In this document: positions 20,871 to 35,525 of the stretch, one piece after another
Layout: every line of letters starts with the position of its first letter
Position numbering within the stretch: the first letter of the stretch is position 1
Source: Limnothrix sp. RL_2_0
GTDB lineage: Bacteria > Cyanobacteriota > Cyanobacteriia > Cyanobacteriales > MRBY01
Assembly: GCA_012033055.1 (NCBI GenBank)
Contig: JAAUPR010000001.1
Coordinates: 1-55,600, forward strand
Direction of reading: 5' to 3'
DNA length: 55,600 bases
Made by a program: the position numbers and the translations under genes
The notes under the pieces: generated by a model
The model's database searches: none
Told to the model about the DNA's origin: nothing
What the model saw: only the letters and a program-made list of their open reading frames with translations

Positions 20871-22256
20871 GTGAAAAAATTACTTGGATTGTTATTAGCG
20901 AGTGGACTGGCACTGGCTTCGAGCACATTGGCGGCGGTGGCGGAAACGGAAAAATTGCTAACCCAAGCCCAGTCTTCCCAAGATTCCTATTGGCAAGAGT
21001 CGGTGGATTTGATGCAAGCTCAAATTAATTTGCTAACCCAAGTCGAACAAGCCCTCTACAGCACCCAGCGCAACTATGTGAGCAGTAGTTATCGCAAGCT
21101 TTTTTTCCAGATCAGTAGCTTGGATCAGTACTTAGAAAAATATGGCATTGCGTCCCAAAGTAGCTGCAACAATCAGCCCCTATCCGCCGAAAAGTTAGCT
21201 GTTTATTGTGCTTTGTTTAATTCGCGTCCCACTTTGTTTTCTCTGCTCGCAGCAACGGAACAGCGGCAAGGTCGTTTAGGCACTAGTGAAGATAGTTTGC
21301 TGTTTCCTATTTCTGGATCATCTTTGATTTCATCGGATTTAACGCCCCAAGAAGGTTGGCAGAGTTCTGAAGAAACCTTTGATGTTACGGTCATCGATTC
21401 GCCCAAGCCTGCCCGTAATCAGGGTGAAATTACCCGCCCGGCGATCGCCCCAATCCCCCAAATTGCCGCAAAAATTGCAGATCAGAAATTAATATTCCTC
21501 GGACTGCGTTCCCAATTACCTGCTGGCTATGTATTGGAAGATGACGACGTTTTCACAACCACAACCACCCGTTATCGGTACATCCCCGTCCCGAAGGAAT
21601 ATGAACTTTACCAAGCCTTTCTAGACCAGCCGAATACAGGTTTGAGCCGCCTTTTGCCTAGGGATGCCTACGAAGAGCCAAATACCACTAGCCGTCTTAA
21701 AGATTCGCTCCGGGAGCAATTTCCGTTTCCTGTCTTGAGTGAATCTGACCCTGCCCCAAATTTGCCACTCATTTTTGAAGGGGAATTTCTCAAATTTATC
21801 CCAGAAAATCTCAATCTCAGTTTAATTGCCGATTTAGGAGAAGTAGATATTGCTGCTGCCCAAAACCTTGATGCCAATCACCCCTTAATTCGTTACCAAT
21901 CGCCCCAAACTTTTGCCGGATTACAGCAGGAGCAACGGCGTTTGTTGTTTCAAAAAGACGGCCTTTCGATGAATTCCGCCCCTTTACAACTTAATCACAC
22001 CTATCTTGTGCGTTTGATTCAGTACGAATTTGCCCCAGAAATTCTCGAAGGGAAAGCCCTACCTCGATATCGTTTCAAAGAAATTACGATGTTGGCAGAT
22101 CCAAAAAGTTATGACGTGCTCGTGGCGGTGCAACCCGTGAAAAGTTGGCTGGATGGATCCTACAGTTTGTTGTGGCAAGTAGTTGATCAAAAACCCGCTG
22201 CTCCCATCGAAGATTTAGCTGACTATATTATGGTTGATTCGCCGTTACGGCCTTAG
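20871..22256 (+). CDS. Secreted hypothetical protein
   Basis: 461 residues starting at GTG. A signal peptide is clear (KKLLGLLLASGLALASSTL, cleavage probably after AAVAE or nearby). A helical part follows (about 30-110, SYWQESVDLMQAQINLL), with two Cys (SSCNN and AVYCALF). The mature protein has no motif I can place; the C-terminal half has short repeated-looking phrases such as LVRLIQYEFAPE and SYDVLVAVQPVKSW. It is probably periplasmic or outer-membrane associated. Its last 29 bp overlap the convergent EI24 gene tail to tail. Confidence 0.75.
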   Translation: MKKLLGLLLASGLALASSTLAAVAETEKLLTQAQSSQDSYWQESVDLMQAQINLLTQVEQALYSTQRNYVSSSYRKLFFQISSLDQYLEKYGIASQSSCNNQPLSAEKLAVYCALFNSRPTLFSLLAATEQRQGRLGTSEDSLLFPISGSSLISSDLTPQEGWQSSEETFDVTVIDSPKPARNQGEITRPAIAPIPQIAAKIADQKLIFLGLRSQLPAGYVLEDDDVFTTTTTRYRYIPVPKEYELYQAFLDQPNTGLSRLLPRDAYEEPNTTSRLKDSLREQFPFPVLSESDPAPNLPLIFEGEFLKFIPENLNLSLIADLGEVDIAAAQNLDANHPLIRYQSPQTFAGLQQEQRRLLFQKDGLSMNSAPLQLNHTYLVRLIQYEFAPEILEGKALPRYRFKEITMLADPKSYDVLVAVQPVKSWLDGSYSLLWQVVDQKPAAPIEDLADYIMVDSPLRP

Positions 22257-23049
22257 GTGAGGTAAGTTTGGGGAGTAGGCGATCGCAGACAAAAAGCGTT
22301 CCTGACGACACACAAATGGGAATTGTCACGAGGTTAATCAGGGGCACGCTAACCAACGTGAGACAAACAAACCCAAACCCCGCACTAGCCGGAAAAGCGC
22401 GATAGACTAGCCCCAGTTTTTTACGGAAAGAAAAGCGGCGACGCTCGAAGGGTGCATCAAAAAAATCGAGGCAAATAATCGTCAGGGTCAAGGTCATGCC
22501 ACCAATGGACGACACAACACTGCCCAACGCCGGAATAAAGTTAATGCCGAACAAAATGGGCGAAATCGAGAATACTAAAGCTAGCTTTTTCAATTCAAAT
22601 AAAACTGCTCGCCCGATGTCCCGCACAATGCCCACTTCGACTATTTCTAGGCGGTCTGTGCGTAGTTTTTCGATTTGTTCTGAGAGTTGTCCGTACCATG
22701 GTGCGCCGAGGATCACGCCGAATTGCACGAGTATTAAACCGACAAAAATAAAGATCGCGGCAACAAAAATAATGCCCAGCAACCCCGCCAGAAAACTTGC
22801 GCCATAATCCAGCCATTGCAACCATTGGGGCAAACGATCAATTAACCCAGTAAAGGTGTTGTTAATCCAGATGTAGCCCCCCGTCGCTGTCCGCCATGCC
22901 CACCGCAGGGAAAGGGTGTATAAAATGATGCCTACAACGATATTTACCACCATAGGAATTGCTAGGTATTGGAGCAATTTGGGATGGCGGGAAAACATTT
23001 TAACGGCGCGTAAGGGATAGCTTGCACCACTGATCAGATCGAAGTCCAT
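22228..23049 (-). CDS. EI24 / CysZ-like integral membrane protein
   Basis: 273 residues with about six hydrophobic segments (PMVVNIVVGIILYTLSL, ASFLAGLLGIIFVAAIFIF, VGLILVQFGVILGAPW and three later). The N-terminus GASYPLRAVKMFSRHPKLL and the stretch DAPFERRRFSFRKKL are typical of EI24-domain proteins. CysZ relatives move sulfate; the role here is unknown. The gene overlaps the 3' end of the convergent secreted-protein gene by 29 bp. Confidence 0.8.
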   Translation of the reverse strand: MDFDLISGASYPLRAVKMFSRHPKLLQYLAIPMVVNIVVGIILYTLSLRWAWRTATGGYIWINNTFTGLIDRLPQWLQWLDYGASFLAGLLGIIFVAAIFIFVGLILVQFGVILGAPWYGQLSEQIEKLRTDRLEIVEVGIVRDIGRAVLFELKKLALVFSISPILFGINFIPALGSVVSSIGGMTLTLTIICLDFFDAPFERRRFSFRKKLGLVYRAFPASAGFGFVCLTLVSVPLINLVTIPICVSSGTLFVCDRLLPKLTSPKAVTANQP

Positions 23050-24891: not shown

Positions 24892-25739
24892 TTAATCCCG
24901 GCGCGAAGGATTTAGCCATTCGTTTAAACCTTCCCCTAGTAGCGATAAACCTGTCACCATCGTCGTCATAATCAAACCGGGAAAAAGGGCTGTCCACCAA
25001 ATCCCTGTGGGTAAAGCATCGAGTGCCAAACGTAGATCATGACCCCATTCCGGTGTGCCATCGGGTAAGCCTAAACCAAGAAAACCTAGGCCACCCAGAA
25101 TCAAAATTGCGTCGGCAGCATTAAGGGTAAACAGTACGGGCACGCTCTGGATGACGTTAAAAAATAGATATTTCGACAAAATTCGGCTGGGTGTGGCTCC
25201 CATGGCTTGGGCGGCTTCGATAAATAATTCTGTTTTGGCGCTGGTCGTGCGGTTGCGTACTACCCGAAAATATTGCGGTATGTAGGAAATGCTGAGGGCG
25301 ATCGCCGCATTAATCACCCCTTTCCCCACCACAAACGCGAGGGTCACAGAGAGTAACAATCCGGGTAGCGTGTAAATCGTATCCATAAAAAACAGCAGCA
25401 CCCGATCCACTTTGCCGCCAAAATAGCCGCTGATCATCCCCAAAGGTACACCGATAATCAGGCTTAAACTGGTCGCTAGCAACACTACTTTTAACGCCGC
25501 TTGTGTACCAAAAAGGGTACGGGACAAAACATCATAGCCTTGGCGACTCGTGCCGAACCAATGATCCCAACTTGGGGCAGCATGGATCGGAAAACTAAGC
25601 GAATCGAGGGGATCTTTCAACCAACCAATTTTTTCTAGTACCGGAGCACCAAGGCGATCGCCACAAAACAGACAGTGATAAAGGCTCCGATCAACGTCAG
25701 CCAACGAGATAAACTTGCCTCAGGATTTCCCCCTGCCAT
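24892..25739 (-). CDS. ABC transporter permease of DppC/OppC type, N-terminus broken by a one-base deletion
   Basis: From about 25652 to 24892 the frame has the OppC-type permease signature: YDVLSRTLFGTQAALKVV, five membrane segments, EAAQAMGATPSRI (the EAA loop that contacts the ATPase) and GLGLPDGTPEWG. The true start is the ATG at 25737-25739; from there MAGGNPEASLSRWLTLIG and a first membrane segment read in another frame up to FVAIAL at a HIP1 site. One missing G near 25653 moves the frame; adding it gives VAIALGAPVLEK. Repaired, the protein has about 282 residues. The partner permease, ATPases and binding protein are not in the window, so the substrate (oligopeptide, dipeptide or nickel) is unknown. 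Confidence 0.85.
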
Positions 25740-25807
25740 AACCGACCATCCGCACTTGAAACGCAACGTTAGTCAGTATAGCGGCTGATGTGTTGACCGC
25801 AGACGAT

Positions 25808-26146
25808 TTACCAAATATCTAAACCGAATAAAATGCTTTCGTGGTCGGACAAATCCCCAATAAACTTCCGGAGGGGTGGGGGTAATTTTTTGACTAAAGT
25901 GGGCGTTGCCACCACATGATCTTTTTCCGCGAGCTCTGGTTGTTCGTAGATATCAATAACCCGAATTTCGTGGCGATCTTTTAGGTATTGATGGCAAATG
26001 TTGCGCAGTTGATTGATCGCACCGCGAGAACGAATACTTTTACCCGCGACATAAAGATACAACACATAAAATTCTTTTTTCTTATGCTGCGTTTTTAGAT
26101 CAACGGCATCATCTTTGAGGCTATCTGTGGGGGGATCGGAGGGCAT
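25808..26146 (-). CDS. KaiB-family protein (solo)
   Basis: 112 residues. The KaiB core is clear: YVLYLYVAGKS, IRVIDIYEQPELAEKDHV, ATPTLVKKLPPPLRKFIGDL and DHESILFGLDIW. KaiB is the thioredoxin-like clock protein that switches fold to bind KaiC. There is no kaiA or kaiC in the window, and the first 22 residues are an extra charged N-terminus (DPPTDSLKDDAVDLK). The sequence is divergent from clock KaiB, so it looks like a KaiB2/KaiB3-type paralogue. It starts 18 bp after the cysteine desulfurase and is probably in its operon. Confidence 0.85.
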   Translation of the reverse strand: MPSDPPTDSLKDDAVDLKTQHKKKEFYVLYLYVAGKSIRSRGAINQLRNICHQYLKDRHEIRVIDIYEQPELAEKDHVVATPTLVKKLPPPLRKFIGDLSDHESILFGLDIW

Positions 26147-26164
26147 AGATTTTGGTAGAGCTTT

Positions 26165-27328
26165 TTAGGCAAACAGAAGAAAACGTTGCCGTTGGAGAAT
26201 TTGTCGAAGGGCGATCGCTGTCCATTCTATATCCTCGACTTGAGTTTCTCCACCAAATGTTAGACGGATACCGGAAAGTGCCGTTTGGTTGCTGTAGCCC
26301 ATGGCCTTGAGGATCAAGCTGGGGTTAAGCGCTCCACTATGGCAAGCTGATCCCGCGCTCATGCCAATGCCCGCCAGATTCATTTGTCGCACTATTGTTT
26401 TGCCAGTGATGCCGAGTAATGGGGAGTTTGGTTTGATGCTAAAGCTGGTGTGGTGGGGTAAACGGTGGTGGCGATCGCCGGTAATTTCCAAATGTTCGCA
26501 ATCGGCCATTTTGGCAAAAAACAGTTCCCGCAACTCTAGTAAACGTTGGGATTCAGTCCCCAAATTTTCTTCCGCTAATTCTGCCGCCATCCCAAACGCC
26601 ACAATGCCGGGAATACTCTGGGTTCCAGATCTTAAGGCTCCCTCTTGCCCTCCCCCAAAGATCATCGGTGCTAATTCTAAGCCGTCACGGATATACAAAG
26701 CGCCTGTCCCTTGCAAACCATAAATTTTGTGGCTCGATAGGGACAATAAATCTACGGGCAACTCACTGACATTAATAGGAATGCGACCGGCTACCTGCAC
26801 GGCATCGGTGTGGAAGAGAATGTTATTTTTTCTGGCGATCGCCCCCAATTCTTGAATCGGCTGAATCGTGCCTACTTCGCTCTGACCGTAGATGATCGAA
26901 ATTAAAACCGTGTTGGGCTGAATGGCTTGCTCTAAATCTTGGGGGTTCACCCGACCAAATTGATCCACTGGTAAACGGGTCACTTGCCAACCTTTTTTTT
27001 CTAAAAAATCTGCGGGTTTAGCGACGGCAGGATGTTCAACGCTAGAAATGATCAAATGTTGGGGGCGATCGCAGCGATTGATGATGCCAAAAATAGCCAA
27101 ATTATCCGCCTCTGTTCCCCCAGCTGTAAACACCAAATTATCAGGATTTGCCGCCCCAATTAGACCAGCCACCTGCATCCGCGCCATTTCCAACAACGTT
27201 GCCGAACGATTACCCCACCGATGCAGACTCGAAGGGTTGCCCCATTCTTCAGCACAAACCTGCCGCATCCGCTCAAGGACTAGGGGATGAGTGGGTGTCG
27301 TTGCACTGTAATCAAGATAAATCTGCAT
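26165..27328 (-). CDS. Cysteine desulfurase, NifS/IscS family
   Basis: 387 residues from the ATG before QIYLDYSATTP; a start four codons upstream is possible but unlike the family. It takes sulfur from cysteine for Fe-S clusters, thiamine or tRNA thiolation. PLP binding shows in TAGGTEADNLAIF; the Schiff-base lysine in LSLSSHKIYGLQG; the reactive Cys in SAGSACHSGALNPS, where sulfur is held as persulfide. Full length. It probably starts its own transcript, because a strong terminator lies just upstream after the GH57 gene. KaiB follows 18 bp downstream. Confidence 0.93.
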   Translation of the reverse strand: MQIYLDYSATTPTHPLVLERMRQVCAEEWGNPSSLHRWGNRSATLLEMARMQVAGLIGAANPDNLVFTAGGTEADNLAIFGIINRCDRPQHLIISSVEHPAVAKPADFLEKKGWQVTRLPVDQFGRVNPQDLEQAIQPNTVLISIIYGQSEVGTIQPIQELGAIARKNNILFHTDAVQVAGRIPINVSELPVDLLSLSSHKIYGLQGTGALYIRDGLELAPMIFGGGQEGALRSGTQSIPGIVAFGMAAELAEENLGTESQRLLELRELFFAKMADCEHLEITGDRHHRLPHHTSFSIKPNSPLLGITGKTIVRQMNLAGIGMSAGSACHSGALNPSLILKAMGYSNQTALSGIRLTFGGETQVEDIEWTAIALRQILQRQRFLLFA

Positions 27329-27413: not shown

Positions 27414-27442
27414 AAAAAAAACTCCCTCAAAATTGAAGGAGT
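27414..27442 (-). terminator. Intrinsic terminator after the GH57 gene
   Basis: On the minus strand ACTCCTTCAA and TTGAGGGAGT pair over nine to ten positions with a tiny loop and seven following T, 38 bases after the GH57 stop. Confidence 0.88.
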
Positions 27443-34776: not shown

Positions 34777-35525
34777 TTATTCCTTCAGTGATTTGCTGGT
34801 ATCTGGAGAAAGTTTTGCCCCGGCCTCGGCATCGAGTATCCACCATAATGAGCCGGTATCTGGGGTGATGAGTTTGCTGGGATAGGCTTTGGGGTCAATG
34901 TCTTCGTGGAAAATCTTTTGTAAGGGTTCTTGTTTATTGGTTCCAGCAATAAGAAACAGGATATTTTGGGCGGCGTTAATTAAGGGAACGGTGAAGGTTA
35001 TTCTGGGTTCGCCTTGTTTTTCGCCCACTGTAACGAGGCGATCGCCCACATCAAGGGCTGGTGTAAAGGGAAATAAAGACGCAGTATGCCCGTCATCGCC
35101 CATACCCAGTAGCACAATGTCGAATTTTGGCATTTGTCCGGCAGTCACTTGGAAAAATCCGTTAGTTCTTGGTTATGGGTCGCCGCATCAGTGGCTGGAT
35201 CGTTGGCGAAAGTGGGCATTGGGTGAATGTTGGCACTAGGGATATCAATGTGGTTTAACCATGCTTCCCGAGCCATTTTTTCATTGCTATCGGGATGATC
35301 TGGCGCAACATAACGCTCATCGCCCCAAAAAACATGGATTTTTTCCCAAGGCAAATTTTGTTTCGATAATTTTTCGTAAAGGGGTTTTGGAGTGCTCCCC
35401 CCTGCTAATGCAATCGTGCAACGTCCTCGCTTGGCGATCGCCTCCTCCATACGACTCAGCACAATTTTGAGCGCCCGTTTAACCAATTCAGGCTTATCAT
35501 CCAAGATTTCTAGAAATTTTGTCAT
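34777..35525 (-). CDS. pgl: 6-phosphogluconolactonase, reading frame broken by a one-base deletion
   Basis: It hydrolyses 6-phosphogluconolactone in the oxidative pentose phosphate pathway. The first part (35525-35145) has IALAGGSTPKPLYEKLS and HVFWGDERYVAPDHPDSN, the two phosphate-binding blocks. The frame then ends early in DFSK. One T is missing from a run at 35153-35157; restoring it gives ELTDFFQVTAGQMPKFD and joins the rest (to 34777), with DIVLLGMGDDGHTASLFP, the third block. Repaired, it has about 249 residues. Homopolymer sequencing error is likely. Confidence 0.9.

What the first reader, a model, noticed from the sequence alone, without database searches (positions are those of the whole stretch)
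25808..27328. Orphan KaiB-like protein in an apparent operon with cysteine desulfurase
KaiB normally lies next to kaiC. Here it follows a cysteine desulfurase by 18 bp with no kaiA or kaiC nearby, and carries an extra N-terminus. This suggests a KaiB2/B3-type paralogue with a role in redox or sulfur state rather than the main clock, or a clock link to Fe-S supply.
Basis: partly seen in the sequence, partly recalled or inferred. Interest (0 to 1): 0.5.

Follow-up and report, generated by a model that had tools for sequence, protein, structure and literature searches.

The report
Partnerless second KaiB beside cysteine desulfurase
A small group of cyanobacteria carries a second copy of the clock protein KaiB that has no KaiC of its own, sits right behind an enzyme that supplies sulfur for iron-sulfur clusters, and may act on the cell's single main clock.

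Summary
Window 25808-26146 (-) encodes a 112-aa KaiB-domain protein (PF07689, 89.7 bits) 18 bp behind a class-V cysteine desulfurase. The same genome has a complete kaiABC cluster on another contig, with the only KaiC found. The extra KaiB is conserved: it lies 14-18 bp behind the same desulfurase in 6 of 6 held genomes of the family (one is Picosynechococcus sp. PCC 7117), each with a single, 96-100% identical KaiC, and is under purifying selection. In a sample of 388 genomes of the order, no other genus gives a match near its score. By tree it forms one clade (100/99), apart from KaiB1, KaiB3 and elongated KaiB-4, on the KaiB2/KaiB3 side; its sister is unresolved. The "extra N-terminus" is a short, barely conserved leader. 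A sulfur or redox function has no direct support: one cysteine, no CXXC, and the desulfurase stands without KaiB elsewhere. The KaiC-binding C-terminal half resembles KaiB1, while the N-terminal half and the KaiA/CikA-docking strand do not, and the acidic tail is missing. Best reading: an accessory KaiB that acts on the sole KaiC, probably co-transcribed with a cysteine desulfurase. New variant of a known kind; moderate interest.

The parts
25808..26146 (-). orphan kaiB paralogue, 112 aa: leader 1-25, KaiB domain about 26-112, no acidic tail
   Evidence: PF07689 89.7 bits; NCBIfam KaiB equivalog models match below their cut-offs; conserved in 6 of 6 held family genomes
26165..27328 (-). class-V cysteine desulfurase (NifS/IscS-like), first gene of the unit; a TTG-started ORF reaches 27340
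   Evidence: PF00266 235.6 bits; TIGR03402 405.1 bits, below its cut-off of 530.75, and NF002806/PRK02948 subfamily 310.9, above its cut-off of 304; start ATG shared by 6 genomes
26147..26164 (-). 18-bp gap between the two genes (14, 14, 14, 17, 17 and 18 bp in the six genomes)
   Evidence: in G001 and G005 the mechanical ORF starts earlier and I took the conserved ATG
27421..27442 (-). terminator-like hairpin with T run between the preceding gene and the desulfurase
   Evidence: 6 such sites found in 2.7 kb, mean 3.5 in shuffles, so weak
25772..25782 (-). GCTATACTGAC, identical in 6 of 6 genomes, in the gap to the next gene; I read TATACT as the -10 box of a separate promoter for the permease gene
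   Evidence: the promoter reading is inference, the consensus scan did not list it
24892..25704 (-). ABC transporter permease gene, third gene of the conserved block. In this window its 5' end looks frameshifted: the ATG shared with the relatives, at 25739, is not in frame with this ORF
   Evidence: PF00528 83.1 bits; next to the pair in 6 of 6 genomes

Best explanation
The gene encodes an accessory KaiB that works on the cell's only KaiC (KaiC1) rather than with a KaiC of its own. Expressed as the second gene behind a cysteine desulfurase, it would switch to the thioredoxin-like fold, dock with its KaiB1-like C-terminal half on the CI ring of KaiC1, and so compete with KaiB1 and SasA. Its altered beta-2 strand and missing acidic tail would make it recruit KaiA and CikA poorly or differently, so it would tune period, amplitude or output. 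Shown: gene, synteny, single KaiC, selection, residue pattern. Inferred: binding to KaiC1, competition, co-transcription, effect on rhythm.
For: One KaiC in each of 6 of 6 family genomes, one of them a single contig; the only other hit in each is weak, 19-24 bits. Orphan in 6 of 6, in the same three-gene block although both outer flanks differ in two genomes. Purifying selection: the one unsaturated pair of 15 has dN 0.019, dS 0.436; 8 pairs have dN 0.14-0.28 with dS above 2; 6 pairs gave no dS. Fold-switch positions (S. elongatus numbering) G88 and D90 are kept in 6 of 6, K57 is H in 3 and R in 3. Of 19 columns that separate KaiB1 from KaiB2/3, the orphan has the KaiB1 state in 0 of 11 up to residue 50 and 5 of 8 after it: T61, R73, D81, R82, I87 (Fisher p 0.005). 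The C-terminal half forms the KaiC CI interface, and beta-2 with K42 docks KaiA, beta-2 also CikA (review PMC6378743, passages read); at residues 38-42 the orphan reads RHEIR where KaiB1 reads VYALK.
Against: No binding or expression data. The column test was made after seeing the pattern and the columns are not independent; trees of the two halves did not resolve the point. In the tree with added rows the program warns that long branches meet where the orphan joins, so its place may be false. The AlphaFold model of the orphan is too poor to say which fold it takes (mean pLDDT 53.4; KaiB1 control at the same depth 72.4). The orphan evolves faster than KaiB1 (mean identity 74% against 97%), so it may be under weaker constraint. 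K57 is not kept.
Confidence: 0.42

Rival explanations
1. Remnant of a lost kaiB2C2 or kaiB3C3 system: the KaiC partner was lost in the ancestor of the family, the KaiB stayed behind a housekeeping gene and has a minor or residual role.
For: The orphan lies on the KaiB2/KaiB3 side of the tree (99/89 and 98/87). Of the 24 best non-family loci returned by the order search, 19 have a kaiC2-type gene beside the KaiB and one more a fragment; 2 are KaiB1 and 2 have no KaiC in the stretch. AU tests do not reject joining it to KaiB3 (p 0.49), to one KaiB2 clade (0.484) or another (0.385).
Against: Purifying selection at saturated synonymous divergence and retention in 6 of 6 speak against a decaying gene; the KaiB1-like residues of the C-half suggest a new partner.
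Confidence: 0.27
2. A KaiC-independent partner of the cysteine desulfurase: it binds or regulates the enzyme, or links Fe-S supply to time of day.
For: 14-18 bp spacing and shared block in 6 of 6. In S. elongatus a CikA partner, NhtA, has been suggested to help assemble the Fe-S cofactor of the clock input protein LdpA (PMC5520375, passages); that NhtA is a NifS-type protein is my recollection.
Against: The same type of desulfurase is found in 38 of 40 sampled genomes (6 family, 32 others) at 56% identity or more; 24 loci outside the family were inspected and none has a KaiB within about 1.5 kb. One cysteine, not specific to this group, and no CXXC.
Confidence: 0.13
3. Chance neighbourhood: whatever the KaiB does, it merely rides on the desulfurase promoter and the desulfurase has no bearing on it. 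This concerns the pairing only and does not exclude the best explanation.
For: The desulfurase stands without KaiB in 24 of 24 loci inspected outside the family; the third gene of the block, a permease, is equally conserved in place without any obvious link.
Against: Conserved short gap at saturated divergence; but this also fits operon inertia.
Confidence: 0.18

Closest known systems
KaiB1 (clock KaiB of kaiABC)
   Same: KaiB domain; C-half with T61, P62-L64, R73-K74, IGDLSD(R)E, G88, D90
   Different: No kaiA/kaiC beside it, no acidic tail, different N-half and beta-2 strand, K57 replaced; below NCBIfam KaiB cut-offs
KaiB2 beside kaiC2
   Same: N-half residues such as C31, L35, R38, E40, E48; most of the best matches outside the family
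   Different: No KaiC2 found in any of the 6 genomes; own clade; C-half D81/R82 where KaiB2 mostly has N/T
KaiB3 of kaiA3B3C3 (Synechocystis; PMC11372060, abstract, passages and one section read)
   Same: C31, L35, E48, fold-switch G88/D90 in most rows
   Different: No kaiA3 upstream, no KaiC3 found; KaiB3 rows with two unlabelled rows form a separate clade (100/100)
KaiB-4, elongated KaiB (KaiB-TV-4, PDB 8UBH; PMC10808063, passages and one section read)
   Same: KaiB without a kaiC within 3.5 kb in 21 of the 22 long KaiB loci fetched, as far as the stretches reach
   Different: KaiB-4 has a ~150-aa N-terminal extension (PMC5520375, passage) and forms its own clade (100/100); the orphan has neither

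Membership tests
KaiB domain family (PF07689) | profile match above cut-off | tested here: met
   89.7 bits against 27, positions 2-82 of 82
KaiB1 | NCBIfam KaiB equivalog cut-off | tested here: not met
   TIGR02654 92.6 against 145.3; NF006798 95.2 against 110
KaiB1 | gene in kaiABC cluster | tested here: not met
   kaiABC on C67, this gene on C64
KaiB1 | falls in KaiB1 clade | tested here: inconclusive
   Separate in both trees (KaiB1 97/84 and 94/81); AU for orphan plus all KaiB1 p 0.261, orphan plus three KaiB1 of the family p 0.0586
KaiB2 | KaiC2 in the genome | tested here: not met
   single KaiC in 6 of 6 genomes
KaiB2 | falls in a KaiB2 clade | tested here: inconclusive
   basal to the KaiB2/3 side; joining to two KaiB2 subclades not rejected, p 0.484 and 0.385; a third test did not finish
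KaiB3 | kaiA3 upstream and KaiC3 in the genome | tested here: not met
   upstream gene is a desulfurase; single KaiC. A kaiA3 elsewhere in the genome was sought only with the KaiA profile
KaiB3 | falls in KaiB3 clade | tested here: inconclusive
   outside it at 100/100; union not rejected, p 0.49
KaiB-4 | N-terminal extension of about 150 aa | tested here: not met
   leader of about 25 aa
fold-switching, KaiC-binding KaiB | fold switch and KaiC binding | not testable with these tools
   G88 and D90 kept, K57 not; AlphaFold model too weak
cysteine desulfurase (class V aminotransferase) | profile match, PLP lysine and catalytic cysteine | tested here: met
   PF00266 235.6 bits; SSHKIYG and SAGSACHSG motifs read in the translation, motif meaning recalled

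The most novel reading that the evidence does not exclude
A fifth KaiB lineage, confined to one cyanobacterial family, that has re-specialised to bind the sole KaiC1 while losing normal KaiA/CikA docking: a natural competitor that couples the main clock to the expression of a cysteine desulfurase, hence to Fe-S or sulfur state.
Probability: 0.2. Interest if true: 0.68.

Novelty: new variant of a known kind. Interest (0 to 1): 0.42.

Why it matters
The additional cyanobacterial KaiBs described in the papers I saw either co-occur with their own KaiC2 or KaiC3 or are the elongated KaiB-4. A conserved short KaiB in genomes with exactly one KaiC offers a clean, deletable system to ask whether extra KaiBs tune the main oscillator. 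The family includes Picosynechococcus, which I recall as a tractable laboratory genus, so it can be tested directly.

Tried and rejected
Thioredoxin-like redox or sulfur-acceptor role: rejected as main reading (one Cys, no CXXC). Truncated KaiB-4: rejected (no N-terminal extension; lower scores with KaiB-4 than with the KaiB1, KaiB2 and KaiB3 rows; separate clade). Recent duplicate of the family's own KaiB1: unlikely but not formally rejected (log-likelihood 27.7 lower, p 0.0586). Recent gene conversion of the C-half from KaiB1: no sign, because only 7-13 of 27-30 identical residues share the codon. A mosaic origin by half-trees: unresolved. A KaiC in the window: the PF06745 hit is DnaB. A KaiB of phage origin: no match in the phage collection. 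AlphaFold for the fold state: uninformative; no fold search was run.

Papers: no paper describing this gene turned up in four searches: kaiB with PCC 7002 and kaiC, KaiB with cysteine desulfurase (in the one KaiB paper I checked the term is in a reference title), kaiB with Picosynechococcus (none), and terms for extra or orphan KaiB. Only openly licensed papers are held, and the listings were read, not all texts.

Full report
What is there. On the minus strand, window 26165-27328 encodes a class-V cysteine desulfurase and, 18 bp later, 25808-26146 encodes a 112-residue KaiB-domain protein. The KaiB match is strong (PF07689, 89.7 bits, cut-off 27) and covers the domain, but it stays below both NCBIfam cut-offs for clock KaiB. 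An ABC permease gene (PF00528) follows; in this window its 5' end looks frameshifted, since the start shared with relatives is out of frame. Between the KaiB gene and the permease lies GCTATACTGAC, identical in six genomes. I read it as the -10 region of a separate promoter, which would leave the desulfurase and the KaiB as a two-gene unit; this is inference.

The rest of the genome. The window lies in a 4.13-Mb assembly of 200 contigs, 97.45% complete. PF07689 finds three places: the KaiB of a complete kaiA-kaiB-kaiC cluster on contig C67, this gene, and a SasA-type kinase on C119. PF06745 gives seven matches: the two KaiC domains on C67, the DnaB in the window, and weaker ones in frames on C68 (two pieces), C113 and C14, which I take for RadA/RecA-like ATPases without testing. 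A search with the KaiC protein in the 6 held genomes of the family finds one KaiC each (96-100% identical) and one weak hit of 19-24 bits each. For comparison, KaiC2- and KaiC3-type genes near other kaiBs score about 146-592 bits with the same protein in my own phmmer runs, some of them cut by the locus end, one fragment only 30.

Conservation. The orphan is present in 6 of 6 family genomes, 14-18 bp behind the desulfurase and followed by the permease. In two of the six (G004, G005) the genes on the far side of the desulfurase and of the permease differ, so the block shared by all six is these three genes. One member is Picosynechococcus sp. PCC 7117: L125, whose contig length equals that of G003:C1. 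In a sample of 388 genomes of the order, the six family members score 204-223 bits and the next is 126 (these six built the profile, and at most 12 first-look candidates were scored per genome). A class sample of 388 gave 5 genomes at 1e-31, all already seen. The plasmid collection gave 15 records, all below 60% identity; the phage collection gave none. A genome-contig scan gave one locus, PCC 7117.

Selection. Nei-Gojobori estimates over 15 pairs: G002-G003 has dN 0.019 and dS 0.436; eight pairs are saturated (dS above 2, dN 0.14-0.28); six gave no dS. The gene is under purifying selection but changes faster than KaiB1 (mean identity 74% against 97%) and about as fast as the desulfurase (76%).

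Which KaiB. I labelled KaiBs by gene neighbours and length (101 rows) and built two trees of 72 rows. The first left out 29 of 101 rows: three short KaiB-4, one SasA, 14 KaiB1 and 11 KaiB-4. The second also dropped five long-branched rows, cut KaiB-4 to six, and added eight KaiBs from proteobacterial and Bacteroidota plasmids. In both, the orphan is one clade (100/99), KaiB1 is another (97/84, 94/81), KaiB-4 another (100/100) and KaiB3 with two unlabelled rows another (100/100); the orphan lies on the KaiB2/KaiB3 side (99/89, 98/87). The program warns that long branches meet at that join in the second tree. With about 100 columns the sister is not resolved: AU tests do not reject union with KaiB3 (0.49), one KaiB2 clade (0.484), another KaiB2 clade (0.385) or all KaiB1 (0.261); union with three KaiB1 of the family is close to rejected (0.0586); a sixth test did not finish.

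Residue pattern. Against 30 KaiB1, 28 KaiB2 and 7 KaiB3 rows, 19 columns separate KaiB1 from KaiB2/3 under the thresholds I set. Up to residue 50 (S. elongatus numbering) the orphan has the KaiB1 state in 0 of 11 (7 KaiB2/3, 4 neither). After residue 50 it has the KaiB1 state in 5 of 8 (1 KaiB2/3, 2 neither); Fisher p is 0.005. The switched C-half makes the interface with the KaiC CI ring, while beta-2 with Lys42 docks KaiA and beta-2 also CikA (PMC6378743, passages). G88 and D90, named with K57 as suggested fold-switch residues in PMC5520375 (passages), are kept; K57 is H or R; Lys42 is Arg; the rest of beta-2 differs; the acidic tail of KaiB1 is missing. The test was chosen after seeing the pattern. 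Trees of the halves were inconclusive, and codon identity gives no sign of recent gene conversion.

The desulfurase. It is a widespread form: at E 1e-70 and 56% identity or more, 38 of 40 sampled genomes have it (6 family, 32 others). G034 (61% complete) has no match and G028 only a second type at about 40%; G027 and G015 are partial matches. Of the 30 loci returned, 24 lie outside the family and none of them has a KaiB or this permease within about 1.5 kb. So the enzyme does not need the KaiB. A published suggestion ties a CikA partner, NhtA, to the Fe-S cofactor of LdpA (PMC5520375, passages). I recall NhtA as NifS-like but could not test orthology; the original paper is not held.

Structure. 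AlphaFold with the six orphans gave a poor model (pLDDT 53.4); six KaiB1 at the same depth gave 72.4. Nothing is concluded about the fold state.

Verdict. This is a conserved, family-specific KaiB paralogue with no KaiC of its own, probably acting on the single main clock. It is a new variant of a known kind. The sulfur link is a neighbourhood observation worth a bench test, not a result.

Noticed in passing
window 34777-35525 (-): The 6-phosphogluconolactonase-type gene (PF01182) is split into two overlapping ORFs matching profile positions 2-121 and 124-225: a frameshift or an assembly error.
   Followed up: partly
window 24892-25739 (-): The permease gene after the orphan looks frameshifted near its 5' end, unlike its relative in G001. 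With the split gene at 34777 this is the second such case in 10 kb, which may point to assembly errors in this contig.
   Followed up: partly
G000-G005: The family shows no elongated KaiB-4 (three KaiB-domain matches each: KaiB1, orphan, SasA-type), while 22 of 34 relatives outside the family have one by open-frame length (my count; three more look short or cut). The orphan might fill its place.
   Followed up: no
L159 and L161 (Hymenobacter plasmids): KaiB-domain genes without any kaiC annotated in the 5.3-kb stretch: other orphan KaiBs, in Bacteroidota.
   Followed up: no
L085, L104, L106, L108, L109, L110, L112, L113, L115; L158: Tandem pairs of distinct KaiBs beside a kaiC gene (kaiC2-type in the cyanobacterial loci, only a fragment seen in L112); the two copies fall into different clades.
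   Followed up: partly
window 22228-23049 (-): EI24/CysZ-type membrane protein (PF07264), the fifth gene after the desulfurase; in the same neighbourhood in G001-G003 but not seen in the stretches of G004/G005.
   Followed up: no
G001:C1:869342-870457 and 889398-890513: Two desulfurase matches with identical scores 20 kb apart, suggesting a duplicated segment in that genome.
   Followed up: no
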